A DNA stretch of 64,000 nt from Letharia columbiana. Its lineage: Eukaryota; Ascomycota; Lecanoromycetes; Lecanorales; Parmeliaceae. Every line of letters starts with the position of its first letter. Within the stretch, counting starts at the first letter, position 1. This document shows positions 25,509-48,565 of the stretch, piece by piece. A model generated the notes under the pieces. It worked only from the letters and a program-made list of their open reading frames with translations, was not told the origin of the DNA and ran no database searches. Location of the stretch: positions 434,001 to 498,000 of the forward strand of contig NW_023501040.1 in assembly GCF_014066305.1 (NCBI RefSeq), read 5' to 3'. A program made the translations under genes and the position numbers.

Positions 25509-27199
25509 CTAATAGTTCGATATTTTGTCGCCTCCATACTGCACCTTGCGGATCATTGACCGGTTACAGTCCGCTATGTTCTGAATGCCGGCTAAGCCCA
25601 TACTTTGGTCGAGGTCCTGCGCATTGGTTGAGAACGGTGCTCCGACGCATATTAGGGAACCAGGAATGCTTACTGCTAACAAGCCTCGGACGACATCTCG
25701 AGCACCAAGCTTCCCTCCTACTGCCAGGCCATATACAAAGGGTCTGAGTGTAGACGTCAGCTGGACTGTTATGCAAGAACAGGACGCGGGGGAATGATTC
25801 ACCTGCCGATCAGCACGCCCTTCGCCCCTAAACTCAAAGCTTTGATGATATCAACGCCTGTCCTGATACCACTATCGAAAAGAACCGTAAGCTGATCCCC
25901 AACTACGCAAATTTCCGAGTTAGCATTGCTTGGTCGAAGTAGGTAATGGAATTGCAAGACAGGTCTCTGGAGTAGAAAGGTCCTCTTGCTCCCGAAACAT
26001 GTCTTGCGACTCAATTTCAATACCACGTAGGAAGTATCAGCTCCGAAATGCACGTACCAGCCTCCACAATCTCTGGTAGCACTTCCAAACTCCCAATGGC
26101 TCCATCCAGCTGTCGTCCGCCATGGTTGCTAACCACAATCCCGTCAACTCCAGCTTGGACTGCCATCCTCGCATCTTCAACATGCTGGATTCCCTTCAAG
26201 ACGATTGGGCCATCCCACTCCTTCTTCAGCAGCTCCAATTGCTCCCACGTGTGGGCGGCGCCGCTGAATACGGCTGCTTCCCATTCGCGGCTTGCCTGTA
26301 GGATGTCTTCTTCAACTTCAATGTTGTGCTTTTGCTTGAACTTCCGGCGGAAGACTGGGTCAGAGAAGCCTGTTTGGTCTCCAATCCCTGAGGCGAAAGG
26401 TACATATGCATTGTCGAGATCAGCAGGGCGCCAGGAGAGAGTCCAAGTGTCCAGGGTTACAAGGAGGACGCTGTAGCCATGAGACTTTGCACGGTGCAAG
26501 AGCTGTACAAAACTGTGTCAGGCACTGAAGCCAAACAGTCTACAGATGTCTGGGCGACGTACTGATACGGTGAGATCATCGTCTTGGGGCCAGTATAGTT
26601 GGAAGAATCGCACACCATCCCCACTTGCTTTGGCCACGTCCTCGATGCTGGCGCTCGACGCTGTGCTGAGGATATATGGAACTCCAATCTCGGTCGCGAC
26701 TTCTGCCACTCCAAGCTCCTTGTCTGTGTGAAAGATGGTCTGAACGCCCACCGGAGCAATGAGAAGAGGTGATTCGAGCTTGTGACCGAAGAGTTCGACT
26801 CTCAAGTCTCGGTGTGTGGTGGGCCGGAGCATGCGGGGAATCATCTGGTCGGTGATTGTCAGCCATTGAACCATATTGTATGATTGAGGTGAACCGTGCC
26901 TTCCATTGTCTAAATGCCAGCCGGTTCGCATCCATCGTACTTTTCTCACCGGCTCCACCAGCAACATAGTTGAAACTTCTAGCACCAAGATATTTTTTTG
27001 CCTGTTCTTCAAGCTTGTTTGGATCGGTGGTCACGGTTGGTAGTTTGTTCTTGAGCAAGCCATCCTCGTAGATTTCCTACCCAATTGGTCTTCGTTAGCT
27101 TCCGGTTGCATTCAGCTCAAGGGGGAGTTTTACCGCTTGGAAGGCGCCATACTTGCGGCCGCCCTCGGGTTGCTCGGGGTGCTCCTGAACTTTCGGCAT
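25509..27199 (-). CDS. FMN-dependent 2-hydroxyacid oxidase (lactate 2-monooxygenase-like)
   Basis: Seven exons (27134-27199, 26900-27076, 26563-26844, 26058-26502, 25803-25902, 25674-25743, 25509-25616) encode 415 residues. The family oxidises 2-hydroxyacids such as lactate or glycolate with FMN in a TIM barrel. Visible features are [18 protein letters not shown] near the N-terminus, [35 protein letters not shown], the lysine of VLKG (about residue 278), and the active-site signature SNHGGRQLD with catalytic His at about 302, then LFDSGIRTG for phosphate binding. There is no cytochrome b5 domain, so it is not a Cyb2-type dehydrogenase. The N-terminus and the DTWTLSWRP block resemble lactate 2-monooxygenases best. 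The intron at 26845-26899 starts with GC instead of GT, and the last intron (25617-25673) is in frame and free of stops. Confidence 0.9.
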
Positions 27200-27864
27200 A
27201 GCTACGCAGAACCAAGAGTCTCTACGATTTGAGGACTCTTTGTGTGAATGATAGCGTGTGGAGATGTGAAGCCAATGATGAAGTAGGGCAATTGAGAGTG
27301 GAGCTGTTTATTAGAGTGATCAATTGAATCTTCGGCGCAAAAACCCCACCAACGTCATGAGCGGAAAAACAGGCCCGGTGCCGGGAATCTTTATTCTTTA
27401 GTGTAAAGGGACACTGAAAGAATTGTAGAACCACCTCGCGATATTATTGAAATGCGAACATTCCCGCAAATTGTATTCAGAAACAACTTTGTCAGGTCGA
27501 TGCATGGACGTCAGAAAGACCAATTCCTGTAAGCAGCCGCGGAACATTTCCCTCAAAGCAATTCAAAATCTAAGTGGGAAACAAGCCAAGTACTTCAGTT
27601 TTTTTTTTAGAATGTATTATATAGCCATTGTCTAGCGATACAGTGTCTTTGTTGGTACATGATAGCAATGTCTCACATGATTGGGGTATACGCTAGAATG
27701 TCGTAGATGTAGCAACATGAGCAAAGTGCAAGCAAAACCGAGCCACGGGAGATGTCGTTGAGATCTTTTGGTTAGTGAAACAATGAAAAAGGTACCGGCT
27801 CTCTGATCCAGTCCGAAAGCTCGTATCCTGACCCGCGCGGGCGGTAGAGAGGTCACGATGGGGC
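27200..27864. other. Intergenic region between the oxidase gene and REC8
   Basis: About 660 bp. Promoter of the oxidase gene and 3' flank of REC8. Nothing else recognised. Confidence 0.5.
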
Positions 27865-30320
27865 TCAGACCCCAGCTGGCAGGCTGAGATCAATGGAGCC
27901 ATACGGCAACACTTGACGAACAGTGATCAGGCTCTTCGTGGCAAGAGCGAGAAGGTGGTGCAGTGCTTGAGCTGCGACGATCTTACTGTGTTGTGTAGGC
28001 GGCAGTAATCGTTCGAAGGACGCGGAAAACTTTGAAAGACCATCTCCGGCAAGCTCATCCTCATCATCGCTTGCATGGGCGGGAAGGGCCGTGATTTCGG
28101 CTTTGACGAATTCTAGGAAATTGTTGGCCTCTTGATTCAGTGTTGCTCTCATCCATTGTGACTGTCCAGCTGTTTGAGTATCAACGGCGGCAGCGGGACC
28201 ATAAAGCTGGAAGTCGTCAAGGGCTTGATCATCAGAGATCTGGCGACCACCGAGAAGCTCGTCATCATCTTCAACAGGAAAGTTTTCAAGACTGCTGTAA
28301 CGTTGGCGCCCGCGGCCGAGGAGAGGACTGGCGCTGAGGATTCGACTGGCGCGTCTATCCTGTGAGCTGGGACCAGCAGCAACGGGTGGTAAAGAGCTAG
28401 GAGCGCCAGCACTCGTAGGGAACCCGCCAATACTGCCGGCGAAGCCACGACCACGGATGACGGAGCCTTGACGAGAGCCGATGGCTGAGCTGATATTCCA
28501 TGGCATAGAAGGATCTTCGAGTGCTGGCGGAGCATGACGCCCAACCTCGACTTCCTAGAAATGGTCAATGAAGAAAAAGATCCACTGACGGTACTCATGC
28601 ATACGTCGTTGCCTGAGATCATTATTGTCCCGTCGTCATCCAACATCATGTCGCCTCCACGGCCGATCTGAGCCCCGTCGCCGTCTCTGATCCGTACGCG
28701 TCGGGCTTCGCTACCAGAGTCGTGGTCTTCCTCGTCATCACGTCCTCTCTTCTGTCCAGCGATAGAGATTCTGACGCCTGTCAAAGCTTCCATCATGGCT
28801 TCGCCTGCAAACATATCCAGAGGACTTTGGAGCTTTGAGCTGCCTAATCCAGCACCTACACCGCCAATGCCAGCTCCGACGACCCAGAAAGCAGCATTCT
28901 TCTTTGCGAGGACAGGAGCTTTGTGGCTCCTTTTGGCTGCGGTTGCCTCGGCCATGTTCGCAAGGTAGTCGGTCTTCCATTGGGTGAGGTCAGTATTGTG
29001 GAGCTCCTGCATTTCATCCACTGGCAATGTTTTAGGTGTTCGACGCCTATGCTGCAGAGGAGCATCTGCAGACTCAGACGATTCTTGTTCTTCATGTACA
29101 CCCGACGAAGGACCGAGGATTCCAGAGCCGGCAGGAGCTTGAAGTGCGGTTGTTGGAAAAGCCTCGGCGTCAGGCAGGACGATGTCGTCGTCGATTTGGG
29201 GAAGGTCAAGGTCGAGGTCCATTGCACCGGGCTACTATTGGATGAGTCGTCTGCTCGATTTAATTTGGGAGTCAGACTTACCTCCAATCGGCCAGCTTGG
29301 TGACCTTCCATTAGTTCTTGACGCACACGAGCACTGGCGGCAGAATCACTGCCTAGCCGTATGCCGCCAGCCAGAGCAGCACCTGGTCCAGGAGTAGGCT
29401 CTTCCACCAAATTGCCATCGGCGTCAATGGTGAAGCCGGGATCGATGTTAAAGCCTTCGTCTTCGTCGTCCAACAGACGGCCGATCCGTGCACTACGTTG
29501 AGCTGAGCTGACATTCTCACCCGGAAGGATGAACCCGCCCAGGTCTCCAGCACCTCCGCTACCAGAGCTAGGTATTACGAGGCCGAGCATTGACTCGTCA
29601 GCTTCAGCATGGCTTGAAAGGCTAGAGCGCTGTGAATGGGGTGATAGTATGCTGGAACGGCGAGAAGAGTCGTCCGTAGAGATATCGAGCGCAGATAAGT
29701 CAATGTCGAGTCCCGGAAGGGCGAGATCTGGGAGGAACGCTGGGTCATCTTGAATGACGAGCTGGTCGGAGCTGCCAGTGTCCTCAGTGCAAGTCCACTG
29801 TTCAAAGACCCGAACTTACCGCGCTTTCCCAGCGTTAGGATCTAACTCCGAGGTACGAACGGCTTTGAGGAGCGCTCTCATGTTACTCTGGGCAATTTGC
29901 GCGTCGGACAATACATAGCCACATTGCTGGGAGAAGACGCGAGAGACACCATAGCTGTGAAGAGTATGAGCAGGCTTCAAGATGCCCACATCCTGGGAAC
30001 CTACAGCAAGTTGCTTTGCAATCTCAATGCCATTGGCGCTTCCGGTTGGATGATGATGCTGCATGTCTTCGGGATGTCGACGTCAAGGATAGCCTTTCGA
30101 TTGATCTTTTTGGTGTTCGACCGAGACCCAAGCGTCGCGACAAGCCTGTCGATGTCAGCTGCATGCTGAGATTCAAATCTGAATGGGAGAGTAAGTACGT
30201 ACCACACAGTCGCGACGCCTCCTTCACGAGATGTGAGGACTTGCAAGCGGAGGATAATTAGCTGGCAAGCTCTCGAACTCGTAATGGCATTGGAAACGTA
30301 CTTTCGTGGCTGTAGAACAT
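27865..30320 (-). CDS. REC8: REC8 meiotic cohesin kleisin subunit
   Basis: Seven exons (30302-30320, 30203-30239, 30005-30145, 29820-29954, 29282-29771, 28605-29231, 27865-28554) encode 712 residues. Kleisins close the SMC1-SMC3 ring; Rec8 replaces Rad21 in meiosis. The N-terminal domain begins MFYSHEILTSREGGVATVW and continues LVATLG, PEAPMALRLQSNLLYGVSRV and QQCGYVLSD, which fit Rec8 better than Rad21. The middle is acidic and serine-rich, offering separase and kinase sites that I did not map. The C-terminal winged helix that binds Smc1 is at about residues 630-700, with HSKIVAAQALHHLLALATKS. The 19- and 37-nt first exons are needed to reach the start codon. All splice phases match. Confidence 0.92.
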
Positions 30321-31385
30321 GGCGTGGAGACGGGAAGATGATCACTGGAGAGCTTTTTCTAAAAGGAGATGATGAAAAAGCCAGGATGTCCTGGATAAAG
30401 GAAGTCGGAGGAGACAAATACAGGAAGATTTGGCAGCTGAACTTGGGCCTTGTATGAAGGAGAGAAGGAGGTGGAGGAAATGGAATATGACGCGCCATAC
30501 TCTAGTAGTCGAAGAGGAGCTACGGACCAACTTAAGCTTGTCGAGCATTTGGAGCGCTTTTGAAGCCTGCGTTTACCATCTCACAAGAGCAAGTCATTAC
30601 TTCATCATTGGTATAGCATTGATACACATGTTGATAAGGGCAAGAGTGAAGAGACTGCATGGAACGAAGTGCGATTTCGAATACGGCTGTGATGGGCATT
30701 TCTATGCTCATTGCTCAGTAGAGAGCGGCGAGTTTGGAACCATAGATCTTGTCAATGTGACGCAATGGGGCATCAGAAGGGATTCTTTCAGTCGACGGTG
30801 GCCTTCACACACACGAAAAGCATGATGAGAGATGCTACAGTGGCATGAAATATCTTTCTAGCTGGATTGTAAGCCAAGACTTCTTTGGCCTCTGGACAGA
30901 TGATAACATGTGACCTCAGCAATTGAGTAGCCGACTCAATCCTACCTACTCATCTCCAAAAAGGGACGCGGTATCGAGGAAGTTTTATAGCATGGTGTGT
31001 TAATGTAGTGATAGGAATCATAGGATTAAGGATGGAAGGAGTGAGTTACTATCGCAGTGTTAGCCGAGCAAATGCCGAGGCGCTTAGGCTAGTGTCGCGC
31101 CGCCAACGGCATGAATCAAGGGAAATCAAAACATTACCTTACTTAAGGTACATTAAGTAAAGTAGGTATCTAAGGCAAATATTATAACCACACAATTGCA
31201 CCAGCTTTGTACCTGCTCTTCTTTCAGGACAGACAGCGTTGCCAATCCCCCTGCCCAGAATCAGAGCACGTCTTTCAGCATCCTACCATTCTGTTAGAGC
31301 TCTACTTCTAACCAAGCCAGCCCGTCGGGTTGCCTGGTGTTAGCCCTTGCTGCCAACCTCTGACCAGAGAACAACCGTTCACGGC
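30321..31385. promoter_or_regulatory. Divergent REC8/kinase-fragment upstream region
   Basis: About 1.06 kb between two divergent starts. No gene supported. ACTTT/AAGT-type strings cluster at about 31134-31180. Confidence 0.4.
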
Positions 31386-31766
31386 ATGGCGGCCATTGCA
31401 CCTCCACCATCACCTCTGGGTAAAGGCAAACCCAATTTCACCTTGCCCATGCCACCTCCTCTTCTCCACACTCGTTCCGCTAATGACATCTACGAGCCAC
31501 CGCACACGCCAACCAGCGCCGGGTTCACATCTCCGCATGCCACCCCTCAAGGCAGTCCGAGCAAGAATAAGCTTCCTCCAGGGGCCAATGAACTTCCAGA
31601 TGTTTTCGAAAATGCCTTGAAGCTTGGCCCAAGCAGCCCTAACAAGGTTGGAAGGCAGCAATTGAGTCCGCACTCACCGAATAAAGGCGCCAGGCAAGGC
31701 TTCGAAGAGATATTTGACGAAAGCCTTCGATCTGATCCCATTAATCCTAATGTCTCTTGTGGCTAA
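31386..31766 (+). pseudogene. N-terminal fragment of a Dbf2-like (NDR) kinase gene
   Basis: An open frame of 126 residues starting with a good ATG (GGCATGGCGG). It is Pro/Ser-rich, with PPPLLHTRSANDIYEPP, TPTSAGFTSPHATPQGSPSK and repeated SPNKG units. From memory of the family this is the disordered N-terminus of the Dbf2/Sid2 mitotic-exit kinase of filamentous ascomycetes. No kinase domain follows: after GFEEIFDESLRSDP the frame ends at 31766, and the DNA beyond is the start of another gene on the opposite strand. Either a truncated copy produced by deletion or rearrangement, or an assembly join. The intact kinase would normally have several hundred further residues. The identity is moderately sure; the truncation is directly visible if the identity holds. 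Confidence 0.6.
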
Positions 31767-31782
31767 GCAAGAATGAAATTAC

Positions 31783-32298
31783 CTTAAGGGTATAATCCAC
31801 ATCGGACGTAGTATACGCCAGGCCAGAATCCACAACTTTTGCAAAGGCATTATCGGATGCAACCTTGTAGCTGACACAAACGGGAGCGGTGGACGGAGGA
31901 GCAATCTCGCTTTCGCTGTATATCGGAACTGGGTTATACAAGGGTACATAATCCGAGACAGTTGAGTTGTCGTTGACATCATCTTGGATTGGTGCGCATC
32001 TTGTCCAAATGATGACCGAGTTGGGGAATGGGTCTCCAGAAGCGACACCATGAGTGAAGTTCAAGGCTCCAGGGTATGGAGAAGAACCATTGTTTCGCTT
32101 GTTAACCTGTGTACACAGTCATTGGCATGGGCGTAAGGCGATAAGTAGATAAGTGATGAATCCGTCCACCCATCATACCTTGTGAATTGAGACACCGAGG
32201 CCGGGATGATTGTGAGAGGGACTTCGATAGTTAATGTTGGATGCGTAGCTAGCTACCGCCACACCTGCAAAGACAAGGGTGATTAGGAATTGAGGCAT
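31783..32298 (-). pseudogene. N-terminal fragment of a PhoD-like phosphatase gene
   Basis: Two exons, 32179-32298 and 31783-32106 (72-nt intron), encode a start MPQFLITLVFAGVAVASYAS, which is a signal or membrane anchor, then NYRSPSHNHPGLGVSI, LNFTHGVASGDPFPNSVIIW and TTSDVDYTLK. This is the N-terminal domain of PhoD-type alkaline phosphatases (metal-dependent phosphodiesterase/phosphomonoesterase, often secreted or vacuolar). The metallophosphatase domain that should follow is absent. At 31782 a GTAATT could be a splice donor, but within 20-50 bp the sequence becomes the truncated kinase gene on the other strand. The frame also opens upstream to 32517, without family similarity. Confidence 0.75.
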
Positions 32299-33259
32299 GC
32301 TTTGCAAAAGGAAGGAAGTAGCCTTTTCCCCTACGACTTTATTCCTTCTTTCATACATCTCCATTATTCTTTCCCTGAGCTCCTTCTTATATGTCATTCT
32401 TTTTTCTCCATCTTTCCCTTCTTGCCCTTTTCCGCCAAGGCTGTAGGCCCACCTGGTTCCTGTTTCCCCGGCAAGTAATGCGTCTTCCTCGGGGGAAAAA
32501 AAGAATCCCACAGCCAACAGACCCTGCCAATGGCAGGCTACAATTCTCCCATGCTCAATGTCAATTCCCTACAACCTTCCTCTTCCGACCGAGCATGATG
32601 AGATACAGTCAGAACCTGGGCCTCCTCCATATGCACACGTGCATGCGGGTTCTGATTGATTGGGTGCTTGAATCTGCATGCGAAGGATCCCTTTATCCTT
32701 TAGCACTCTTGGCATGCAGGTGCGAATCAACGGGACAATCCAGTACCTTCTAGCCGAGAGAACGTGAATGCACGCAGCTCAGGCACCATGCGCTATGCGA
32801 GGGAAATGCTTGAATTATAAGATTGTCAAGAATTATGATTACAGCTAAAGCAATTAATCCTCTTGCAAGGTCACCTTTCCCATATGTATCCCTAGCGTCT
32901 CCACCCCCTACCACACCCTTTCCCAACATCTCAGTATGCTGGTACCTAGATGATTCTTCCTGCTGCAAGCCAACCTTCATTTATCGGTCCCGCTCTTTCT
33001 GCAATAACGTCAAGACCCTTCGATTAGGTTGGGTATCTTCGAATATGTTGCATGCGCTAGGTCCGCGCTATGCTTGTCACACACACAAAGAAATGAAATG
33101 CCCATGGGCTACGCAGGAATCCAAGTTGTAGATTCATAAAAGATACCAGTCGGCGACAACGTGATGCCAATTTGGCAGTGTCTTCCCGAGCTTAGGCATT
33201 TTGTCTCTCCTCAACACCAAGACAGTCATGCTCAATTGTCGTTCGTCTACGAGTCTTGC
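32299..33259. other. Intergenic region between the PhoD fragment and the Red1-like gene
   Basis: About 960 bp. Presumed promoter of the PhoD fragment and 3' flank of the Red1-like gene. No other gene recognised. Confidence 0.5.
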
Positions 33260-36200
33260 TTACAAGGGTAAAACCTTGGAGCGGTCTCCGAGGAACTTGG
33301 CACGATATGCGGTTATTTCTCCTGCCACGATGTTGAAATCTCTGATCTTCCTGGAACGAATGTCGTGGATGACCTCTCGCAAGCCATTGCCGAATTCGTC
33401 AGGCGAGGAGCCGTCGTCTGGTTTAGCTCCCAAATCAACAAGGATCTTGTCATCTGCGAGAGTGATGAACCTTGAGTCAGCTTGCGAACTTCATGGAGTT
33501 GTGAAACGAGTACCGATAAACCACGGAACAATACGAAAAAAGCAGCAGAGAAGTACACGCAATCAAGCCTCAATTAACGCACCACTCAAACCAATGCTCC
33601 TCAAATGCTGACTCGGGCAAGAATCATCATTGCATACGCCGTCTAACTCATAGCGACAAAGTGGAATTTCTGGATTGATAGTATGACTATAAGTCAATGA
33701 TCGAAAGCCATTGGAGACTTCCTCAAGATACTGAGGATGATACCGAAATGACTTGAATTGCTTCAAGGGACTTTCATATGGGGTAAAATGTCCCGTTTTG
33801 CGGTTGGACTCAAGCTTTTGCACCTGGTTTGATTCAGCGAGCTTCGGCGAAGAAGAACGATATCTTACACTGTGAGACCCAGCTCCGATTGTAATGGCAT
33901 CCACACTCACCTGTTGATGAACGGCTGGTGTTGAGTCGAAGCTCGCAGGCGCAATGAAATCATGACTATCAACATCAGGTGGAGAAAAGGATTTCTCCGA
34001 ATCGACGCTCGATATCTCAGTAGGCCGCGGTACCTCTTCACCTAATGGTGCTGGCTCGGGCGGTTCATAATCATCGGGGTCACTAGCATCAGCCAGAGAC
34101 TGACTACGATTTAGTGATCGCTGTGATTGCTCGTCACCCGCCATACCAGCGTTGGCGGCGGGTGATGGCTCAACCGAACTCGGCTTTCCTATAGGCTCAG
34201 CCTCCTGGTCAGCAGGAAGCGGATTATGCATTGCGGCTGGTCGATCGGTCTTCGCTGTTCCGAGGTCCGGGACAGCATCAGGTTCTGGCTCCTGTCGTTG
34301 CGTTATACTTATTTCACTGGGCGGCTCATAAGTCTCGTCGTCGTCGATAGAACCAGAAGTGTCCTGAACCTCAGTCAAGGGCTTCGGGCTGTGAAAAGAG
34401 GGCTCGGCTTCGTCGACATCGCTACGGGACATTTCCATGATGTCTTCCTCGAGTTCTCCATCTGACATCCGAATGTCTGCCGTCCGCGTTGACGACTTGT
34501 CTTGCACCACCCTACCGTTCCCGGCCCCGGCAGTGCCCGAAAGTTGTATTGAATCCAAGTCGGGGACTGTCTCAACTGACGCTGCGGGTTTCGTCAAAGC
34601 TAACAAAAGAGATCCCAATCAATCTGTGTTACTTTGAACACATCGACGGCCTTGATAAGTAGGCGCACTTACCTGGTATTTCTTGGATGCTTGTTGATTG
34701 ATTTGGTATGTCCCCCACGTCACAAGAATCGAGATCCATAGGCCTAGGCAGGGCCTCTCCAGATCGCGACAAGTTGTTAAGCTCTTCAATCAGAACTTGC
34801 CTGCCTTCGATGCCTTTCTGGAGTTCAGTTTCTAGACCTACTATTTCTTGTCGTAAGGACTCAAGCCTTATTCTTGTCCTCTCTACTTCGGCATCGAGGA
34901 GTGGCAATCCAGACTCTATTTCGGTCTTTCGAGCCTGCCGTTGGTTGCCGAGGGATGTTTTCCGTTCTCGCTCTTGCAAGTGCTTCAGTCGTGCCTCTTG
35001 CGCCCGCCTCTGTTCTTGCTCCTGAAGATGGTGGTCTACCTCTTGTTGTCGTAGATTATTGTTGTCTTGTTCGCGCGCTTGCTGACTCTGGCTTTCTTCC
35101 AGACGTCGCTGTTCCTCATCCTGAAGCCGCTTCTGCTTTTCGTCTTTGAGTCGCTGCTCCTCTCCCCGCAGATTCGACTGCTCCTCTGCTTGTGGAATTT
35201 GCATTCTCTCAATCTGCGTAAGCGATTGGTCCGCTGCCGAGGCTCGAGAAATCTCCGCGGCCAAGGAACGCTCAGCCTCGGCCTTTGCTAGTTCGACTTC
35301 CTCTAACTGTTGCTCTGCATTGAGCTCCTCTTCTGCTGTGGAATCATTTCCTTCAGCGAGAGTAGCGAACGATTCTCCGTTCTTGACAGGTGCGATATCG
35401 CCATTCCGTGAGTCTGAGATGCTCGAGGGCGTATTCGGTGTGCCGTTGCTCTGATGTGGAGCTTCACCTGGAGGTGGTGAAGTTGTCACGCGACTGCAAT
35501 TTCCAGGACTGTGAGTGCGGCTTGTAGTTTGCTTTGCCTTAATAGCGATACGCTGCTCGAGCTCAGCAATTTTGCGATTCATGACTTCGATTTCCATCTC
35601 CTTCGATTTTAGACCTTTCAGATCGCCACTTTGCCCCGAGACTTGCGCAGCAGGAGGCGTCATAACAACTGTTTTCTTGCGTGGCGGAAAATCAGTCAGC
35701 GGAGGCAGGCTCTTGACCAGTCTCTCATTGCCATTGCCTGGAGCAATGACTTGAGAATTTCTTGATAGAGAATCCCGACGACCGGCAATGTCTGTGTCTA
35801 AGGATTCATCTCCCGAGGTGTTATTGCTCACCTCATCGTCGCTAATGTCTATAATGACACTGGTATCCTCTTGCTGCCCCAGTGGTCTCTTTACCCTGGT
35901 GGAAGGTGAATCGATGAAGTCAGAAGCTTTCTGGCGCTTTCGGTTGGGTGAAACTGTTGTTGCGATGGTGGCTGGTAAAGCAAATTTCAGATCGAAGGAA
36001 GTTTCGGGTAATCGCGGTGTCTCATCTGTAGTTGGAGACTGAGCCGAGACCGCAGCGTGTGGACGAAAGCCTTGCTTTGACGCAACGAAGGTGACTAAAC
36101 CGACTGTCTGCGGTGAGACTGCGAAGCCCTCGTTCGCGAGTGGTTGCGAAGGGTTTACAGGTTCCGGAGCACCTGATGTCATAAACAGTCCCGGGATGCT

Positions 36201-38078
36201 AAAGGGGGGCTTCTGGCTTGCTGGCGAAAAGTAAGAGCTTTGGCGACTGGGTACAGGTCGAGATGTTGGAATAGAGCTTTCAGCTGGGATGTTTGGAACA
36301 CCTTTGGCGAGAGGTTGCTGACTGTGTCTCATTGCATCACTGCTGGTTGTTGATCGAGCCTGTTGTTGAATGCTCTCACGAAATTTTAGTGCCTCAATCT
36401 TCTGACGTGCTAGATCTGTCTGAGCTTTTCGTTTCGCTTCTACATCCGAATCTTCGTTTTGAATTCCCTGTGCGGTATCGACCGATTCACTTGGTGCTTG
36501 CTGAGCGGTAGCCGGAACAATCGCTGAGGCAGCGTCTGACGACTGGACTTGAGCAGATGTTCCCGAGTCTGTGATAGTGGATAATTTAGGGGACACAGGG
36601 GTAGTGGCGCTGACGGTGGGCTTGCCAGCCTTAGCTGCTAGCATTCGGGCAATATATTCTTTGCGATCGAGTATTTTTGTCTCGCCAGCTTTGATCCCGG
36701 TAGCTTTACCTAATGGATTCAAACTCGAGGATTTCGATAGTTTCGCTGAGCTGGCTTGACTCTGCACTGACTTCTCCTCGTTCTTGTTCGCTGCAACAGT
36801 GGGTTGGCTGTTGATCTTGCCTTCCTCGTTTACCAGATGTGGAAACGTGTCATCGCCAAGGACGCTGTCATTTGAGCCTCTCTGTGGCGGTTTGGGATGT
36901 TGGTCGTGAATGCCCACAATTGCCTCACCTGGTGTGCTTTCAGTCGGCACGTCTCTAGCGCCAACTCGTGGTTTCATGATTTTCTGTTGCAGTAGATTTG
37001 AAGAAGCTGTGACTGGTAGCCCGATATTGGTGTAGAGTTTCCGGAGTATATCAGGATTCAAGCCCGCATTGATAATTCGGTTGAAGTCAAACCCTTCCGA
37101 ATGCAAGTCTCGTAATGCTTGTTTGGCTTCGTCCATCTTTTGATCTACCAATCGCAGACTTGCTTCCTTAGATCCTTGTGCAACGGTATCCATTGACAGC
37201 TGAGGCTGGGCTGATGTGTTCTCTGCCGTCCGCGAAAACAGAGGATCATCTAGATGATTGATGAAGCCGTTCCGCATGGGATATGGGCGAGGTTGCGATG
37301 CAGTGGAGCGCGGAGAATTTGGCGCAGCAAGCGAGTCTGGGGCAAAGAATATTAGAATATGAAGTCAGACCTGTCAACCAGCGTCGAGCGGCAGGGAAAT
37401 ACCTCGAATGAGCCCAGGAAGCGGTTTATTTGGAGCGTTTGCAACACGGTGACCGGATTCTCTGTCTGCAGGGTCTTCGTCCTCATGTCGCTTGTGTTGC
37501 GCCATTCCTGAAAAGGTCGCCGTACTCGCTCTTGAATGACGGGTTGATTTCTCGATTTCTCCGTCGTCAAGTTCGCCGTCTTCTAGTTCGGACAATGCAG
37601 GTGGAACCGTATCTGAGTCCCTAATGTTCGTGCTTTGGACCTCCGCGGCAGCCTGAAGATTTGAGAAGACAGTACCAGGATTTGAAGGAAGATTTGAACT
37701 TGTGGAAGGTTGAGTAGAGTTTTGAGCTTCGTAAGAAGGCACACCATGCGCAGACGGCGTTGGAGGGAATGCTGGAGATTGAAAGGCACTGTATTGGATT
37801 TGCCCACCATGAGATGGGTATGGGGCTCCATAGATTTCGTTCCCAGAGCTGGGTGTTGTCACACCTTGAGTATTTGAATGAAAGGAATGGGTATTCGCAT
37901 TTGTATGTGGTACTATAGGCATACCATTCATTTGGCCTTGGCCATACAGAGACGAAGCATTTTGATATGGATACGGGTATTGAGGTAGACCATTATCGTA
38001 GCTGCCAACTGGAGGTTCCATGTGGACGTTAGGGTTGAAAGGGGTCCCAAATGTAGGTGGACGAGGATAATTCGACAT
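33260..38078 (-). CDS. Red1-like C3H1 zinc-finger protein
   Basis: Four exons (37403-38078, 34673-37336, 33583-34599, 33260-33453) encode 1516 residues. The C-terminus carries a single zf-C3H1 finger reading CRYELDGVCNDDSCPSQH, with ligands at about C1428, C1436, C1441 and H1445, then a helical tail ending KFLGDRSKVLPL. The N-terminus is Pro/Gln/Tyr-rich, with an acidic motif SELEDGELDDGEIE at about residues 163-176. A long Glu/Gln/Arg coiled coil spans about residues 780-1070. This layout fits Red1 of fission yeast, the scaffold of the MTREC/NURS complex that feeds meiotic and cryptic RNAs to the nuclear exosome. That function is inferred from the finger and layout only. Divergent from the myosin gene. 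Confidence 0.8.
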
Positions 38079-38810
38079 GGCGAATGGCTAGCTTCATGGG
38101 TCAAGAGGATGTGACAGGTCGAAGCTCACTGGTGGTTAGTCGCAAAGCGTTCAGAGAGCACTTGAATGTACATAGGAGATTGCGCAGAGCAGCGCGCATG
38201 GTGGACGAGGAGGAAACGAGGACTGATAGGAATCTACGGTTCAAGGAGAAAGACGCCACCGGGATTCGCAGGAGTGAGTGTCGAAACTGACTGGATCAAG
38301 AGGGAAGTGAAGCTGATGAATAGTGGTGAAGAAGTGAAGGAGTGAAGAAGTGAATGCGTAGCTCAGAGGCAAAGGTATAACATCAGCGACTTGAGAATTG
38401 AGAATAGTGTCGTGTCGTTGTAGGCAAAGTAAGGTACTTTATAAGTTAGGCTTGGTAGGTTAGACTAAAAGTACCGTACTCCGTACTTCGCTGGTCGCTC
38501 GCATTTTTGCAGATTCGAGAACCTCAAATAAACTCTCGGCCCGTTCAGCGCCGAGCCAATCCAGCCTTGGCAAGCGCGACGCGAGTTGCTTCTACCTTAC
38601 CCCTGCAAGAGCTAACTAATCGTTGTGTTTACTTTCTGCCTTTTGGTGAAGAGCAAGCTGTTTTGAGCCTGCTGTGTTCGCCTTTCGCTCACTTACTAGA
38701 ACACGGCCGCTGTACTGATCTGTTTTCACTCGTGATAGTATCATGTCTTTACGTGCGATTTGATTTGCTGCTGTTTGGTCGAACAAAATTGGCAGAGGGA
38801 GATCGGCAGC
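38079..38810. promoter_or_regulatory. Divergent Red1-like/myosin II promoter region
   Basis: 732 bp between two start codons on opposite strands. It holds GTACCGTACTCCGTACTT-type near-palindromic strings at about 38470-38488 and an AAGT-rich stretch near 38430. No specific factor is assigned. Confidence 0.45.
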
Positions 38811-41800
38811 ATGTCAACAACAGGTCCTGTCAGCGCCCGATGGCGCAACAATGCTTTCGACAGAGGTTCACCTTCCCCTTCGCCAGGCCTGGCGGTGCCC
38901 AGTACAAGACCCAGATCCGCTATCATTACCTCGCCTTCGGGCACGGGACCCCCTGCAACGCATAATCGAAACCAGTCATTTTCTCCTCCGAGTGGATCAA
39001 GCTTTGCATCATTACAGCCGGCGATGCAGAGATCGACTTCAACCAGGACGACTCACCAATTATCTAACACCTTTGCACCAAAGTTCATTAAGACCGAAGA
39101 ATCTCAAAGGGCTGGTGACAAGATTGGCGGAATCGAGGGCGAGAACGACTTTTCTGGAAAACGTTACGTCTGGCTGCGAGACCCACAGTCAGCGTTCGTG
39201 AGAGGATGGGTAGTCGAGGAGCTTCTTGGAGGCCGTTTGCTTGTGCAATGTGACGACGGGAGCGTAAGGTGGCTAAACATTCAATTGAACTTGCAGGGAT
39301 TGCTGACAGTGACTCAGCAACGAGAGGTCGATTCCGAGACCGTTGATAAAGTAAATCCTGCCAAGTTCGACAAGGCAGATGATATGGCAGAGCTCACTCA
39401 CTTGAATGAGGCCTCTGTGGTCCATAATCTCCATATGAGATATCAAGCAGATTTGATCTATGTTAGTCATCCGAGCGACGATTTGAGGCTCAGCTAATCG
39501 ATGTCACCAGACCTATTCTGGCTTGTTTTTGGTCACCGTCAATCCGTACTGTCCCCTGCCTATTTACACCAGCGATTATATGAAGATGTACAAGGGGCGC
39601 AGCAGGGAAGATACAAAACCTCACATATATGCCATGGCTGATGGTGCCTTTCGGAATCTGATCGAGGAGGGTGAGAATCAGAGCATTTTGGTCACGTAGG
39701 TGTCTTTCACATCGATTATCCAGTCTCCGCTTATGCTTCGATCAGTGGCGAGTCAGGTGCTGGCAAAACTGAGAACACTAAGAAAGTCATTCAATATCTT
39801 GCAGCCGTAGCAACTTCTGACTCTCCAGGGGTAAAATCTGGAGGACGGCAATTCTCTAACCTTTCGCAGCAGATCTTGAGGGCCAACCCGATTCTAGAGG
39901 CTTTTGGGAATGCCCAGACTGTACGCAACAACAATTCTTCACGTTTCGGGAAATTCATTCGTATTGAGTTTACACGGTCAGGACAAATCGCAGGAGCTTT
40001 CATTGACTGGTATCTGCTAGAGAAATCTCGAGTCGTAAAGCTCAACTCCAGTGAAAGAAATTATCACGTGTTCTACCAATTGCTTAGAGGGGCAGACCGA
40101 CGCATGAAGGAAGACTTCATGATCGCTGATCTAGGAGTGGAGGATTTTATCTACACGAGAGGTGGTAACGATATGATTGCTGGAGTCTCAGATGTTGATG
40201 AGTGGAGCTCGTTGCTGGAGGCTTTCCATATCATGGGCTTTTCTGAAAAGGAGCAGCGATCTGTGCTCCGTACTGTCGCTGCAGTTTTGCTCCTTGGTAA
40301 CGTCACAGTGATGAAGGAGAGCATGCGGGCCGATCAAGCCACACTCACGGAAGATGCTCATGCACAAGCCAAGAAAGTCTGCCGGCTGCTCGGAATTGCC
40401 GTTGAGCCTTTTATTCAAGGATTGCTTCACCCAAAAGTCAAGGCCGGTAGAGAGTGGGTCGAGAGAGCTCAAACGCCAGAACAGGTCCGCTCATCTTTGG
40501 ATGCCTTGTCGAAGGGTATCTACGAACGAGCTTTTGGCGATCTCGTGTCTCGGATCAATCGTCAGCTTGACCGGACTGGTATGGGCCTTGATGATTCCCA
40601 CTTCATCGGAGTCTTGGATATCGCCGGTTTTGAGATATTTGAAGAGAATAGCTTCGAGCAACTGTGCATCAATTACACCAACGAGAAACTTCAGCAATTC
40701 TTCAACCACCACATGTTTGTCCTCGAGCAAGAAGAGTATGCAAGGGAGCAAATTGAGTGGAAATTCATCGATTTCGGAAAGGACCTCCAGCCCACCATTG
40801 ATCTCATTGAGCTCCCAAACCCCATTGGAATTTTCTCCTGCCTTGACGAAGACTCCGTCATGCCAAAAGCTACTGACAGATCCTTCACTGAGAAGATGCA
40901 CTCTTTATGGGAGCGGAAGACGCCCAAATATAGGCCGTCACGTTTAGCTCAAGGATTCATCCTGACACACTACGCAGCTGAAGTGGAATATTCTACGATT
41001 GGATGGCTGGATAAGAACAAAGACCCGCTCAACGACAACATCACAAAGCTTCTTGCATCTTCCCATGACAAACACATCGCTACGCTCTTTACCGACTGTG
41101 CCGACCCTGATGAGGATGCCGGCGCAACAAGGAGTCGTGTCAAGAAAGGGCTCTTTAGGACGGTGGCACAACGACACAAGGAACAACTTTCCAGCTTGAT
41201 GAATCAGCTTCACTCCACTCATCCCCACTTTGTGCGTTGTATTCTGCCGAATCATAGGAAGCGGCCTAAGCAGTTCAGCGCACCGCTTGTCCTCGACCAA
41301 CTGCGATGCAATGGTGTTCTTGAGGGCATAAGGATTGCCAGGACCGGCTTCCCCAATAGACTGCCCTTTTCAGAGTTTCGTCAGCGATACGAAGTTCTTT
41401 GCCGCAACATGCCTAAGGGCTATCTTGAAGGTCGAACGGCCGCCCAGATGATGCTCGAAAAACTGGATTTGGACAATGCTCTTTATCGAGTAGGCTTAAC
41501 GAAAGTTTTCTTCAGAGCCGGCGTGCTGGCAGAACTCGAAGAGCAGCGGGACTCTCTCATTCGGGATATCATGTCTAGATTTCAATCAGTCGCAAGAGGA
41601 TTTACCCAACGAAGGATCGCAAACAAGCGCCTGTATCGAGCGGAAGCGACTCGAATCATTCAGCGTAACTTCGCGGTCTACAGCGACCTTTGCAACAATC
41701 CATGGTGGAGACTCTTCGTTCGGATGAAGCCTCTGCTAGGTGCTACCAAAACTGCTGGAGAAGTCAGAAAGCGCGATGAGACGATTCAGAAGCTGGAGGT

Positions 41801-44800
41801 CCAAGTGCAGCAGGAGAGTAACGATCGACTGAGGCTCGAAGAAGAGAGAAGGCGTGCAGAAACCGAAGTCCAACGCATTCAGCAAACCCTGGAAAGTGAA
41901 CGCTCACTCGCGCTCGACAAAGAGGAAATTTTCAAGCGCCTGCAGCAGCGTGAAGCAGAGCTGATCGAAAAGCTTGCAGGTGCGATAGAAGATCAAGAAA
42001 GCCTTGAAGACCAGCTCGACGACCTCATTGATGCTAAAAAGAGGGCGGAAGAGCAAGCTGAGAAATGGCGTGGCCAGCTTGAGCAGGCGGGACACATCAT
42101 TAGCAGACTAGAAGCCGACAAGAACGACCTCATAGACAGAATTTCCGATTTGGACGATCGAATTAGCGAAAATGAGAGAGCTAGGACCGAGAAAAATGAT
42201 AGACACGAGGGACTCATCCAGAACAATAAGATGCTAGAGAGCCAAATGCGCTTGCAAGAACGAAAAGTCTCCGACCTTGAGAGCAAGCTTCTCAAAATAG
42301 ATCAAGACTTGGATATCAAGCTAGCTACAACCGCAAAGGACTTGCAGCTCTCACGAAAACAGGTCAAGGATCTTTTGGACGACAACCGCCAAATCCGACA
42401 ACAACTCCAAGAGCTCTCATCCACTTCCACCGGCTACGAGGATATGATGAGACGGAAGGAGAGCGAGATTGCTGTATTGAGATCGGATCAAAAGAGGCAC
42501 GATGCCGAGCGCATGACACTGGAGGCGGAGCGAAGCATGTTCGCTTCTCGGCATGATAACATCCAGACACGGTTGCGTGAGATCCAGGCGGAAGTTGATG
42601 CTACCAAATCGCAAAAAGCTCAACTAGAAAGGGAGGCAGCAGATACCAAGAGAGTCCTTGATGCCAAGTTATCTGAGGACACACAGGCCAGCAATAGCCG
42701 CAAGATGTTGAACGGCCAGATAGAGGATCTTAAGGTGGAGCTGTTCCAAGTCCAGGCGGAGCTCAGTCGCGAGAGACAGTCTAGGGACGACGTCCAGATG
42801 CTAAGTGATCACAAGATGACGGCCTTGAAGGAGGAGTATCAGAATCTCAACGAATCGAAGATAACCATCGAGAAAGAGCTTTATGTGCAACAAGATACTC
42901 TCCGCCGTGCAGTTGAAGCACGGGCTAATGCTGAGAAAAGTCGTAAAGACCTGCAAACGGAACTGAAAAAGCTGCGTGAGCGCTTCGTGGAGGCGGAGTC
43001 CTCAAGACTGCAGGCCGAGACAGCAATGGAGCGTAGCATTTCTCGGCAAGCGAATGAGCGTCAAGCCACCCTTAGAAAGGAGCTAGATATGAAGAATGCG
43101 CGATGCGACCAAATCGAGGCCGAGTGCCACCATCTAGCAGATGAAGTACAATCTCTCACCGAGATGATTGCTGATTCAGACAACTTCCGTACCCAGCACG
43201 ACCAGCATAAGGAACGCTTGGAGAGAGAGCTGATAACCGTCAAAGGCCGATTAACAGCGTCAGAGAATGACAATCGTGCACTTTTGAACAAAGTTCAGCA
43301 GAAGAACCTAGACATTGCAAGATCAAATTCTAGAGCTGGCGACTCGCAGAGGTCTAGGATGGGCCAATTGCAAGCGGAGAAAGCAAAGTTGGACGAAGAC
43401 AATAAGAGACTGTCACGACAGTATAATGACGCCCAACTATCAATTACGTCCCTGGAGAAACAGAAAGAGAAGCTCGCTTTAAGTATGGAAGATTTCAATC
43501 ACGAGCTTGAACGGGAGCACAAGGCAACCCGTAGTGCCGAGAAGACCTCTTCTAGTGTTAGCATTCAATTTGCTGAGGCCAACCGGAATCTGGAGTCTGA
43601 GAGGCAGCTCAAAACTCAAGCTCAAGCCAACACCAGAAAGCTACAAAGCATGCTCGATGGCGCCAACGGAGAAGTCCAAGAGTCTCGGCGACAGCTTACC
43701 CTTTTGCACAAGGTCTTCGACCCTGAATCGAAGGAGACGGTGCCCTCGTGGGAAGCTGTAGCTCCACGCCTGCGGGACTACACAGACCTGGCTGCACAAT
43801 TGGAGGCTTCCAAGCAGGCTCTGCGAGTGACAGAAGAGAGATTGGGGCGCGCCGAGAACCAGATCTCCGAGCTTCGACGGCGACACGACAGCGAAGTATC
43901 GGAACTTGATGCTCGTCATTCGTCTTCGAAGCGTCAGCTTCTCGAGGAACTTGATCAGAATACGCTACCAGCTAGGAAATCACCAAAGCACTTGCGCAAG
44001 GTCTCTGATCTAAAGCCATACTCCAAAACTTCTACTCCTGATCGTCGTCACATAAGCAACGCCACAAATGATTCCGGCCGCTCTGATCGCACGGTTGACA
44101 CAGCCGCCTACAACAAGCGGATGGATCTTGCGGCTGAGTTAGAAATGGTGCAGAATCAGCTTCAGATGACCGAAATGCAAAATCGCCACTTGCAAAGCCA
44201 AATTGGACATTTCTCGCCGCAAAGAGATTCGTGGCAGGATGATAGCCCATCAGTCAGGCGTGTACAGAAGCTCGAAAGGGAAAATGGCCGACTTCACGAC
44301 CGACTGGATGATTCTGCAAAGAAGGTATCTGCGTTAGAGAGGGCAGTACACTCTGGAGAGCTGTCACTACGAGACGTGCAGGCGCAATCTCATGAAGAGC
44401 TTTACGATCTCATCAATTCGCAAGAGGACTCTCGGAAGTCCTTGGTCCAGGTTTACAACAACACTGTTGCTGACCTGGCTGAAGCCAAGTCACATTTTGA
44501 CAACATCAAACATGTCCGTGCGTCTCTAGAGGTAGAACTTCGGGATACAAAATCCGAACTTCGAGAAGTATCTGCTGCAAACGAGCACGAAACAGCATCC
44601 CGAAATCAACTTTTGCAAGAATTTTCGGATCTTCAAATAAGACTTGATGCAGAAGCTTCCAAAGCCGGAGATCTTGCATCGAGTCTGAGCCTCTACAAGC
44701 GGCGAGCCGACGAGTACTTCAGTAAACTCGAACAAGCGGAAATTGCCGTGCTCAGAGCTTCCCGTGCAGAACAATCTGCCAGGGCACAAGCGAAAGAAAG

Positions 44801-46234
44801 CGAGGATACCTATGCATCAGTCATGGCTGAGCGCAAGCAGATGGATTCTCTCGTCGAAGACTTGCAGCGACAGAATCAACACTACGAGGAAAAGGTTGAA
44901 GATCTTGCTGCAGATCTTGATGGCGCTCTCCAAGCGAGAAAGAGACTTCAGCATGAACTTGAAGACTATCGGAGCCAACGAGCCATGGATGTAGAAGACA
45001 AAGAGACTTCCATGGAGCAGACCAGGAGGAAGTATCAGAACGAGTTTGCAACTCTGACCAATGAGCTAGAGATCGAGCGCGAAAACGTCATTCATGTCCG
45101 CTCCGAGAATACACGCATACGGGACGAACTGGAAGAGTCGAGATCGAAATGGGATGATGAAGTCCTAAATAGTTCATCGTGGGCGAAAGAGAAGTCGAGA
45201 CTCGAAATGACTCTGCAAGACTTGTCATTATCAAGAGAAGAAGCGCTCAATGCTCATAATGATGCGCAAGGAAAGATCGTCTCTCTTCTGTCGCAGGTCC
45301 GTAACTTGCGTACCTCAATGGACGACGTCGCCGCCGAAAGAGATATGCTTCAAAAGGAGAAACGCGGTCTTGAAGCCCGTTTGTCCGAAGCTGGTGATCG
45401 TCTTGAAGATCTCGCCCGTGGCGAAAGCCCGTCAATGCGCAATGCTGCAGGTATGGACCGTGAGCTACTGGACCTGAAGTCTCAGCTTGCCCAGCAAGAA
45501 GATGTGGCAGCCGCTGCTATCGGGAAAATGCGCAGAGCAGAAGCTTTGACTACGGAGATGCAGAAGGATGTCGTCTCCGAAAGGGAGACGACTGTCACTC
45601 TGCACAAAGAGAAGGCAGGCCTGGAAAAAACGGTCAAAGACTTGCAAGGCCGGGTAGTGGATTTGGAGACAAAAGGATACACATACGCTAGCCAGGACGT
45701 GCGCTTTTTGAATGGCAGAGTGCATGAGGTAAGATGATGGATCTGTCTAAGACCCTTTTAGAGGTGGCTAATAATCCCCCGTGCCAACAGCTGGAGCATC
45801 AGCTCGAAACCCAAGAAAACACACACTCCGCCTCCCTTCGTTCCGTCCGCAACGTCGACCGCACAGTGCGTGATCTCCAGTCACAGCTCGCCCGCCGCGA
45901 CAAACTTGCCAACCAACTCACAGATGACGTCGCTAAAGGTCGCGACAAGATAGAACGTCTGCTACAGACAGTTGACGAGCTACAAGCCGAAGAGGCAAAG
46001 AGCCAATTGAGCGCTAGGAGAGCGGAGAGGGATCTGAGGGAGGAGAGAGAAAAGGGGCTCAGACTCGAGAGAGAACTGGAAGGATGGAAAGGGCTGAGAA
46101 TGGAACGAGGGGCTGGTGGAAAGGGTGGTGGCAGCGAGTGGGGCGGGAGTATAAGAGGTAATCATGCGGCAAGGGGCAGTGAGAGTGGAGACGGTATTAG
46201 GAGGATGTTGAGTGATAGTAAAGGGTTTCTGTAA
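38811..46234 (+). CDS. MYO2: Class II myosin heavy chain
   Basis: Five exons (38811-39263, 39318-39461, 39511-39695, 39746-45728, 45791-46234) encode 2402 residues. This is the conventional myosin of the cytokinetic actin ring that drives septation. After a disordered Ser/Pro-rich head of about 120 residues comes an SH3-like domain, then the motor with P-loop GESGAGKT (about 262-269), NNNSSRFGKF (switch 1), LDIAGFEIFEENSFEQLCIN (switch 2 region) and the FVRCILPN and LRCNGVLEGIRI blocks. One or two IQ-like segments follow at about 870-900, then a nearly continuous coiled coil of about 1400 residues and a short Gly/Ser tail ending in MLSDSKGFL. The last intron (45729-45790) separates the final rod segment. 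The 54-nt second intron is in frame and lacks stops. The gene symbol follows general usage and differs between fungi (myo2, myoB, MYO1). Confidence 0.95.
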
Positions 46235-46603
46235 ATATGGGAGGATTGGTGCGATTGCGACTCGAGGCATTTGCGCAGGCGTTGAGAGTTGCTCTACTGC
46301 ATTAGAAGCATTGTCCGTCATCGGAAATACCCTTGATCATATACAACGTTTGTGGGCTATTCTCGAGCTTCACTTTCTGTATAAAGTGAAAGGGTACGTT
46401 GAGCAGGCTGCAGAAATGAACCCAAGTATCTCCTTTATATGCCTGTGCCGGAGTAAGGATTTTGTCGCCAGACACACGACGCCAGATGTGAATGACTTGT
46501 TTCCCACTTTTGTCCTCCGCCAAATGCCGGAGAAAGCCATCTCCTTGCCAGTGGATGACTTTCGCCTTTTCACATCCACATATCGACAGCGAAAACCATA
46601 TCA
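46235..46603. other. Myosin-CTI6 convergent intergenic region
   Basis: About 370 bp of 3' flanks. Nothing else recognised. Confidence 0.5.
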
Positions 46604-48565
46604 TCATTTCTCTCCCCATTTGCCATACTCCGCTTGCCATTTCATCAACCTCCTTGTTAACATTTCCATCATCGCCACACTACTCAGCGCCGCGAAAGCC
46701 TGCTCATTGACGCCCTCCAAATCTGCCAAGGCTGCGTTGACCGTTTTCCCATTATCCCTATCATACTTTGAACCATTACCGTGTCCGTCGCTCCTGTTGT
46801 CGTTGCTTTCTGGGGGAGTGTTTGTGCTGGTCGATGATTTCGTCGTTGAGGGTGGCCCAACCCCTGCCATCTCCACTTGCGTGTGGGAGATGAACTCCAG
46901 AATGCCGGCAACACGGCGTTTCATGTCGTTCATGCTGGTACGATTGAAATTCATGTGGCGCGGCTTGGAGGGTTTGCCAAACCCATTGCTATCGGCAAAT
47001 CCAATGCCGGTGCTGCTGCCATTGAGATGTGGTGTTCCGTTTTCTGCATCATGAGAGTTGTTACTTCGCGCGGGCGACATAGTGGTGGTTGGCATCTCGG
47101 CAGGGAGGTCACGGTCCTTAGTGTATTGATTCCTTCCAACACGGCCTCGCTTTGCCGGTGGTCGCCCGGTCTTTTTCTGTGCGCTCTTGGGTGGCAGGTG
47201 ATCTGGAAGGGCAGGGGCAGCGAAATGGGCGTTGGTGGTGTTGGCGCCCCTGGCAGAGACAGTCCGCGAGAGTGGTTGAGGCGAAGGATCGGACTCTAGG
47301 AGTGAAGAGTATTAGCAGATTCAAGTGGCTGGATGAGCTCTCAGGGCACAATACCATCGCCTCGCCGTCGTTCTGCACGGCCTTTGCGGCCGCCAAATGC
47401 ATCTGCGCGTTCCTTTTCTTGCTGAGCTTCGCGATCTCGAACTTCTTTGTTCCGGTGATTTCGAGCTGCTGCGCCTCTGATGTTTTTGGTTTTCTCTGGC
47501 TTCTCGATTTCATTCTCCGAGTCCGCATCACGGCGACGACTTTTGCTTTGAGAGGCCGAGGAAGCAGAACCTGAAGCAGTCCGTTGGCGCTTCGCGTTTT
47601 CGTTACGCCTGTTCCAATTAGTTCATGAAGCACATTCATCGCGCCGCATAGAAACCTAGAAAAATCGTGCAGGACTCACTCTTCGCTTTCGCTTCGACTC
47701 CGCTTACCCTTTCGTCTGCCCGTAGTTGCGAATGGGGCTCCACCTTCCCTCTTACTCTCCTCAATTGCTCGTCGGAGCTGCTCTTCTTCATACGCGGCGT
47801 CACGGCTATTCATCGTCGAGCGGCGCCCCTTCGATGTATTATCCGCGTTGGCAAGTGGTTTTCTACCATCTCTAGACTTTTTCGAATGTTGTTTAGCAGC
47901 AGGAGCTGGAGAGGACTGTGATGACTTCGATTCCTGCATAGGCAGGTAGTGAGAGTATTTTCGTCTAGGGTCGGACTGTCAACAGAGCCCATGGGCAATA
48001 GAGTGCATACTCACCCATTAGTGGTAGTGGTACTTTTGTGCAAGTCCTGGCGACACTGCTCACAGAAGTATTCCTCGGGGCTCGTAGCTTCATCCATGAT
48101 CCCAACACAGCCTCCATGTTGCCAGACTTTACATAGATCACATTGTATAAACCACCCGGTAGTATCTTCAGCGAAAGACGCAGGATTTGACTCGTCCTTA
48201 GAGACGGTTTTGGCGGGGTCGGGGTCAGGCAATCCTGGATATTCCTGGTTCCCACAAATGCATCTTGTCACTTCTTCTTCGACTTCGTCGTCATTCTCGT
48301 CGTCGATTGCAGGCGGGGCTTCGTCTTTGGGGTCGTCTTGGCTACTCCTCGTCCTCCGCGACTGTGGTCTGGCTGGCGCTTCAGAATCTTCGGGAGACTG
48401 CGATCGAGCAGCTACTGAGCTCCGCGGCGATGGTAACTTGGTTTGCGGGCGGGCGCTGCGATCTGCCGGACCAGAGGAGATAGAGGACGAGGAGGAATTG
48501 GTGTGTTGCGGTGCAGATGGCGTTGGCTGTGTGGTACGCGCCCGTGACGAGCGACGGGGAGACAT
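46604..48565 (-). CDS. CTI6: CTI6-like PHD finger protein of the Rpd3L/Sin3 complex
   Basis: Four exons (48015-48565, 47680-47964, 47355-47608, 46604-47295) encode 593 residues. A PHD finger occupies about residues 102-171 with ligands C102, C104, C142, C145, H150, C153, C168 and C171. Its WFIQCDLCKVWQHGGCVG core can bind methylated histone H3 tails. A Lys/Arg-rich region follows with RKYSHYLPMQ, ARNHRNKEVRDREAQ and a terminal domain with RRVAGILEFISHTQ. In yeast, Cti6 recruits the Rpd3L histone deacetylase to repressed and iron-related promoters. That role is inferred here. The last block resembles the conserved end of fungal Cti6 homologues. Confidence 0.85.

What the first reader, a model, noticed from the sequence alone, without database searches (positions are those of the whole stretch)
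31386..32298. Two gene 5' halves meet tail to tail: Dbf2-like kinase and PhoD-like phosphatase
The plus-strand frame looks like the disordered N-terminus of a Dbf2-like kinase and stops at 31766 before any kinase domain. The minus-strand frame looks like the N-terminus of a PhoD phosphatase and breaks at about 31782 before its catalytic domain. Both missing parts should lie between them, yet fewer than about 50 bp separate the conserved-looking ends. The simplest reading is one deletion that removed the 3' parts of two convergent neighbours. Loss of a mitotic-exit kinase would be severe, so an intact copy elsewhere (partial duplication) or an assembly collapse must be considered.
Basis: partly seen in the sequence, partly recalled or inferred. 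Interest (0 to 1): 0.75.

Follow-up and report, generated by a model that had tools for sequence, protein, structure and literature searches.

The report
False join between two intact genes
Two gene beginnings meet at one spot in this lichen-fungus genome assembly, but both genes continue on other assembled pieces, so nothing was deleted and the spot is most likely a wrong join made during sequencing or assembly.

Summary
In detail: a Dbf2-kinase 5' part (+, from 31386) and a PhoD 5' part (-, to 32298) meet tail to tail, joined at 31724/31725. A deletion is not supported. The missing dbf2 part (549 residues, kinase domain and AGC tail) opens contig C41; 118 of the 120 listed homologues match both halves in order. 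The missing phoD part lies on C7, where a complete 630-aa PhoD reads through. C7 runs 11.67 kb into the same DNA as window 31725-43398, then ends: two left sides lead into one right side. Contig number, size and largest contig match Letharia columbiana, sequenced from a whole thallus reported to hold three genotypes. Best reading: C5-left belongs with C41 and C7 with C5-right; contig C5 crosses over at a sequence of about 11 bases that both genes probably share. Most likely a false join; a translocation in one genotype is not excluded, and the clean shared sequence speaks for it. Reads would decide. Low biological interest, useful assembly correction. Noticed nearby: an introner-like repeat family.

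The parts
31386..31724 (+). dbf2 (Sid2/SidB-type NDR kinase) 5' part, first 113 codons; one copy found in the assembly
31725..31735 (.). Junction sequence of 11 bases. Read directly as shared with C7 (phoD exon 3 / intron 2); that it also belongs to dbf2 is inferred from the frame and the first bases of C41
   Evidence: the dbf2 assignment is inference
31725..31731 (-). first 7 bases of phoD exon 3
   Evidence: gene model on C7 moved to window coordinates through the alignment
31783..32106 (-). phoD exon 2 (PhoD_N, partial)
32179..32298 (-). phoD exon 1
31725..43398 (+). stretch also present as the last 11.67 kb of contig C7 (1349784 to its end at 1361454); 6 differing columns up to 43086, 43 in the last 312 window bases

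Best explanation
The junction at 31724/31725 is a false (chimeric) join in contig C5 of a long-read assembly of Letharia columbiana. In the organism dbf2 runs from C5-left (to about 31734) into C41, and phoD runs from C7 into C5-right. The assembly path crossed from one to the other at a short sequence that both genes probably share (CTTCGATCTGA). It left the dbf2 3' part as the start of C41 and duplicated 11.67 kb of the phoD side as the ragged tail of C7. Shown: both missing parts exist, and two left sides lead into one right side. Inferred: that C5-left and C41 are contiguous in the organism, that the shared sequence belongs to dbf2 as well, and that the C5 join is false rather than a minority arrangement.
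For: dbf2 3' part at C41:3-1810, coding from the third base of the contig; C41:1-2500 has no other match in the assembly; Pkinase E 4.3e-62 and Pkinase_C E 1.6e-7; 90% identity over 100% of the query to Lecanora helva dbf2 of 665 aa; both halves in order in 118 of 120 listed homologues. Complete phoD on C7, PhoD 343 of 343 positions, E 8.4e-115. Searches with the dbf2 side (31186-31724; and 26000-31300, apart from a short repeat at 26000-26062), with C7:1348799-1349783 and with window 43399-47500 found no second copy, so the doubled stretch seems limited to 31725-43398. C7 ends inside it, with 43 of its 49 differing columns in the last 312 window bases, in the myosin frame that is open on C5: the look of a poorly corrected contig end. 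A similar fork occurs elsewhere: the last 7.7 kb of C18 match the middle of C48 at 98.8-99.6%, with no similarity between the left sides. Whole-thallus nanopore data with three genotypes are reported for this sample (PMC10512270, passages). Nanopore misjoins in fungal assemblies are documented (PMC7500977, passages).
Against: The join is clean and lies at what looks like an 11-base shared sequence; random pairs of positions share a run of 11 or more through the joint at a frequency of 8.5e-6 (2,000,000 draws). Nanopore read chimeras in one fungal study showed no sequence bias at break points (PMC7500977, passages), so such a join fits template switching or DNA end repair better than pore-level read chimerism. 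C41 starts within a base of the branch point, as if a true branch stood in the assembly graph. No reads could be examined. The C18/C48 fork has a dispersed repeat on the C48 side (45 matches, itself included), so it may be a real insertion difference between genotypes rather than an error.
Confidence: 0.64

Rival explanations
1. Real translocation breakpoint, made by microhomology-mediated repair, carried by one of the three nuclear genotypes (or arisen in part of the thallus); dbf2 and phoD are broken in that genotype only and supplied by the others.
For: Clean joint at a probable 11-base shared sequence; C41 starts within one base of the fork, as if an assembly graph branched there; three genotypes reported in the sample; the C7 and C5 copies differ at 6 columns in the first 11.36 kb.
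Against: No reciprocal phoD-left to dbf2-right joint was found in the assembly: C41 starts with no extra sequence, and neither its first 2,500 bases nor C7:1348799-1349783 has a second match. A dbf2-null nucleus is unlikely to have come through a sexual haploid generation, since the Sordaria deletion is sterile (inference). The 6 differences may be uncorrected read errors.
Confidence: 0.27
2. A real segmental duplication: a copy of at least 11.4 kb from the phoD side was inserted or copied into dbf2, fixed in the organism.
For: Two copies of 31725-43398 exist in the assembly at 99.58% identity.
Against: C5 continues through the myosin gene past 43.4 kb with no second copy found, while C7 simply ends inside the same frame with a degraded tail; no second boundary of an inserted segment is seen, and the dbf2 3' part is neither in the window nor anywhere but C41.
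Confidence: 0.06
3. One deletion removed the 3' parts of two convergent neighbours.
For: Both 5' parts face each other with almost nothing between.
Against: Both 3' parts are present elsewhere; C7 shows phoD whole with the same right side.
Confidence: 0.02

Closest known systems
Chimeric contigs in nanopore assemblies of fungi, e.g. Drechmeria coniospora (PMC7500977, passages seen)
   Same: A contig joins unrelated regions at one point because of the data or the assembler.
   Different: There, single long chimeric reads (Canu) or repeat handling (Flye) were shown from reads; here no reads were available, and the joint sits at a probable short shared sequence.
Triploid-like Letharia thallus assemblies of McKenzie et al. 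2020 (known here only through passages of PMC10512270 and a table row of PMC9146135)
   Same: Same assembly by contig number, total size and largest contig length; three genotypes in one thallus favour branching assembly graphs (inference).
   Different: The paper itself was not among the listings and was not read, so its assembler, library type and treatment of branches are unknown to me.
Microhomology-mediated translocation breakpoints (recalled kind, no reference from a call)
   Same: Two loci found once each, joined cleanly at a short shared sequence.
   Different: No reciprocal joint found and no read support shown.

Membership tests
Dbf2/Sid2/SidB NDR kinase | AGC kinase catalytic domain with C-terminal extension | tested here: met
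   Met by the C41 part: Pkinase E 4.3e-62, Pkinase_C E 1.6e-7; best solved relatives are the NDR kinases STK38 and CBK1. The window part alone has no Pfam match.
Dbf2/Sid2/SidB NDR kinase | Full-length orthology, N-terminal part included | tested here: met
   118 of 120 listed homologues match the window part and the C41 part in order; several are named dbf2 or sid2 by their sources, a few cot-1 or DBF20. No tree was built.
Dbf2/Sid2/SidB NDR kinase | One contiguous gene in this genome | tested here: inconclusive
   The two parts lie on different contigs; no reads to join them.
PhoD-like phosphatase | PhoD_N and PhoD catalytic domains | tested here: met
   C7 gene: PhoD 1-343 of 343, E 8.4e-115, PhoD_N 1-90 of 90. 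Window fragment: PhoD_N 62 of 90 positions only.
Deletion of two gene ends | The missing parts are absent from the genome | tested here: not met
   Both found, on C41 and C7.
Reciprocal translocation | Second joint (phoD-left to dbf2-right) present | tested here: not met
   Not found in the assembly; a heterozygous second joint could still be in the reads.
Assembly chimera | No or few reads cross the joint | not testable with these tools
   Reads are not held.

The most novel reading that the evidence does not exclude
The joint is a real microhomology-made translocation breakpoint present in only one of three nuclear genotypes sharing a lichen thallus, so that nuclei lacking a working dbf2 septation kinase are kept alive by their partners; this would be direct evidence of structural divergence and complementation between nuclei in a triploid-like lichen.
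Probability: 0.2. Interest if true: 0.5.

Novelty: not a real feature. Interest (0 to 1): 0.15.

Why it matters
It corrects a contig of a published assembly: C5 should probably be split at window 31724/31725 (C5:465724/465725), with its left part facing C41 and its right part facing C7. Anyone reading gene content or synteny from this contig would otherwise report the loss of a septation kinase or a false rearrangement. If reads show the joint to be real, it becomes a structural difference between nuclei in one thallus.

Tried and rejected
Rejected: deletion (both ends found). Rejected: a second complete dbf2 elsewhere; the searches found the 5' DNA (31186-31724) only on C5 and the 3' DNA only on C41. 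Rejected: RIP-type decay as the source of the C5/C7 differences; there are only 5 substitutions and 1 gap up to 43086, too few to show a pattern. Rejected: a new telomere on the C41 end; it starts directly in coding sequence, and three TTAGGG units in a row occur at only 3 places in the assembly, none on C5, C7 or C41.

Against my reading of the joint: a motif search for Y-[A/S]-L-G-P, the start of the C41 part, found it in 0 of the 120 homologues, and the inferred stretch R-S-E is one residue shorter than the matching stretch of P0001 and P0002; this region varies in length, so the 11-base shared sequence rests on weak support.

Led nowhere: plasmid collection; paper searches for the assembly by '161 contigs' or '52.2 Mb', for the original wolf-lichen paper (not listed), and for structural variation in Letharia. 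Not done: relatives of PhoD were not searched; no tree of the kinase was built; five kinase-bearing contig pairs looked doubled (C99/C132, C65/C122, C74/C143, C18/C48, C1/C140) and only two of the five were compared as DNA.

Full report
What is in the window. The minus-strand fragment carries PhoD_N, E 1e-16, but only 62 of 90 profile positions. The plus-strand fragment has no Pfam match, but 118 of the 120 Dbf2 homologues listed (the best 120 of 5,349 hits) match it.

Where the missing parts are. DNA searches of the window's own genome (52,243,142 bases, 161 contigs) found window 31186-31724 only once, while the DNA right of 31725 also occurs on contig C7. C7 is 1,361,454 bases long, and its last 11.67 kb, from 1349784 to its end, match window 31725-43398 at 99.58% over 11,682 columns. 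Left of 1349784, C7 carries the rest of phoD: seven exons give a 630-aa protein with the complete PhoD domain, 343 of 343 positions, E 8.4e-115. The dbf2 remainder was found from a kinase match near the start of contig C41. C41 (480,185 bases) begins AATATGCC, and from its third base it encodes 549 residues in four exons with Pkinase E 4.3e-62 and Pkinase_C; its best solved relatives are the NDR kinases STK38 and CBK1. Its best relative by sequence is a 665-residue protein named dbf2 from Lecanora helva, 90% identical over 100% of the query. In P0001 the window part matches residues 1-112 and the C41 part 117-664; 118 of 120 listed homologues match both parts in this order.

The boundary. Window and C7 differ at the base left of 31725 and are identical from there up to 35057. 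The reading frame of the window part, carried through CTTCGATCTG and on into the first bases of C41, gives R-S-E just before the C41 part; P0001 and P0002, of the 15 homologues displayed, have R-S-E at this place, followed by Y in one and H in the other. So dbf2 probably also contains CTTCGATCTGA, an 11-base sequence shared with phoD at the joint. This is inference: the region varies in length among homologues, ours would be one residue shorter than P0001 and P0002, and a motif search for Y-[A/S]-L-G-P, the start of the C41 part, found it in 0 of the 120. If the inference is right, a shared run of 11 or more through a random pair of positions has a frequency of 8.5e-6 in 2,000,000 draws.

The organism. 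A table in PMC9146135 (passage) gives for Letharia columbiana 161 contigs, 52.2 Mb and a largest contig of 2,188,364 bases. The genome here has 161 contigs, 52,243,142 bases and a C1 of exactly 2,188,364 bases. That table gives 39.57 in what I take to be the G+C column; the window has 50.0% and the whole genome was not measured. PMC10512270 (passages) says this assembly came from nanopore reads of a whole thallus in which three Letharia genotypes were found, and that the raw reads hold both mating types. The original paper (McKenzie et al. 2020) was not read. None of the named proteins among the 120 homologues is from Letharia; why, I do not know.

Why a fork and not a deletion. Searches with 31186-31724 and 26000-31300 (apart from a short repeat at its start), with C7:1348799-1349783 and with the DNA from 43399 to 47500 found no second copy. 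So two left sides lead into one right side, and one of the two contigs stops 11.67 kb later. Of the 49 differing columns between C7 and C5, 6 lie between 31725 and 43086, and 43 in the last 312 window bases, inside the myosin frame that is open on C5; the C7 end thus looks like poorly corrected sequence. Four of the five substitutions change an amino acid in the stop-to-stop frames; the one-base gap would shift the 911-codon frame on C7 (inferred, not translated). A second fork was seen: C18 from 979655 to its end at 987362 matches C48:179403-187114 at 98.8% and 99.6% in two fetched pieces, with no similarity between the left sides; there the C48 left side is a dispersed repeat (45 matches, itself included) and the C18 left side has no second match, so that fork may be a real insertion difference. 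C143 and C74 share diverged copies at 98.4% and 99.3%. Redundant contig stretches are therefore not peculiar to this place.

False join or real minority arrangement. For a false join: both genes are whole when the other contigs are read, no reciprocal joint was found, nanopore misjoins in fungi are documented (PMC7500977, passages), and a dbf2-null nucleus would have trouble passing through a sexual generation, since the Sordaria deletion lacks septa and is sterile (PMC10971303, passages). Against it: the joint is clean and at a probable shared sequence, whereas chimeric nanopore reads in one study showed no sequence bias at their break points, and C41 starts within a base of the branch point, which suggests that the assembly graph had a true branch there. 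In filamentous fungi loss of this kinase need not be lethal: SidB is listed as viable with strong septation and conidiation defects in Aspergillus nidulans (PMC3591445, passages). I put the false join at 0.64 and a translocation in one genotype at 0.27.

Verdict. Observation confirmed; deletion rejected; contig C5 should be treated as chimeric, or as one of two alternatives at 31724/31725, until reads are examined.

Noticed in passing
window 25903-26057 (minus strand): A repeat of about 155 bases with 39 further listed matches at 78-89% identity across the genome (40 of 95 candidates scored). In 30 of 30 copies fetched (the window's own included; 30 of 40 listed) it starts GTACGT, and 27 of 30 have TAG or CAG near the expected end, 154-161 bases on. 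In 13 of those 27 copies the 150-base flanks, joined without it, are open in at least one frame, against 3 of 27 with it in; the window's own copy is open in neither. No random control was run, other introns may interrupt the flanks, and two of the copies (C109, C77) have the same flanks and are probably one place assembled twice. It looks like an introner-like element family (intron-gain repeats). Such elements are reported in Pezizomycotina and Dothideomycetes; the words Letharia and Lecanoromycetes do not occur in the main texts of the two papers looked up (PMC9860276, PMC4457414; passages).
   Followed up: partly
C7:1348954-1349123 (phoD intron 5, minus strand): This 170-base intron starts GTACGTACATATCGGAGC and shows two 21-base blocks at 85.7% to the repeat above, in the same order, E 8.6e-4 each in a pairwise comparison; perhaps an older copy.
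   Followed up: partly
L022/L026 (C18 end) and L023/L027 (C48 middle): Second fork: C18:979655-987362 (contig end) matches C48:179403-187114; the C48 left side is a dispersed repeat, the C18 left side has no second match. Possible repeat-insertion difference between genotypes.
   Followed up: partly
L024 (C143:24001-32000) and L025 (C74:17001-25000): Diverged duplicate stretches at 98.4% and 99.3% with a length difference between the aligned blocks; may be alternative genotypes kept as separate contigs.
   Followed up: no
window 39675-45737 (+): 2,020-codon open frame of a myosin heavy chain (Myosin_head E 6.9e-221); the C7 tail ends inside it.
   Followed up: yes
whole assembly: Three telomere units (TTAGGG) in a row occur at only 3 places (C30, C34, C64), and the reversed control pattern at 6, so the expected telomere arrays seem to be missing or collapsed.
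   Followed up: no
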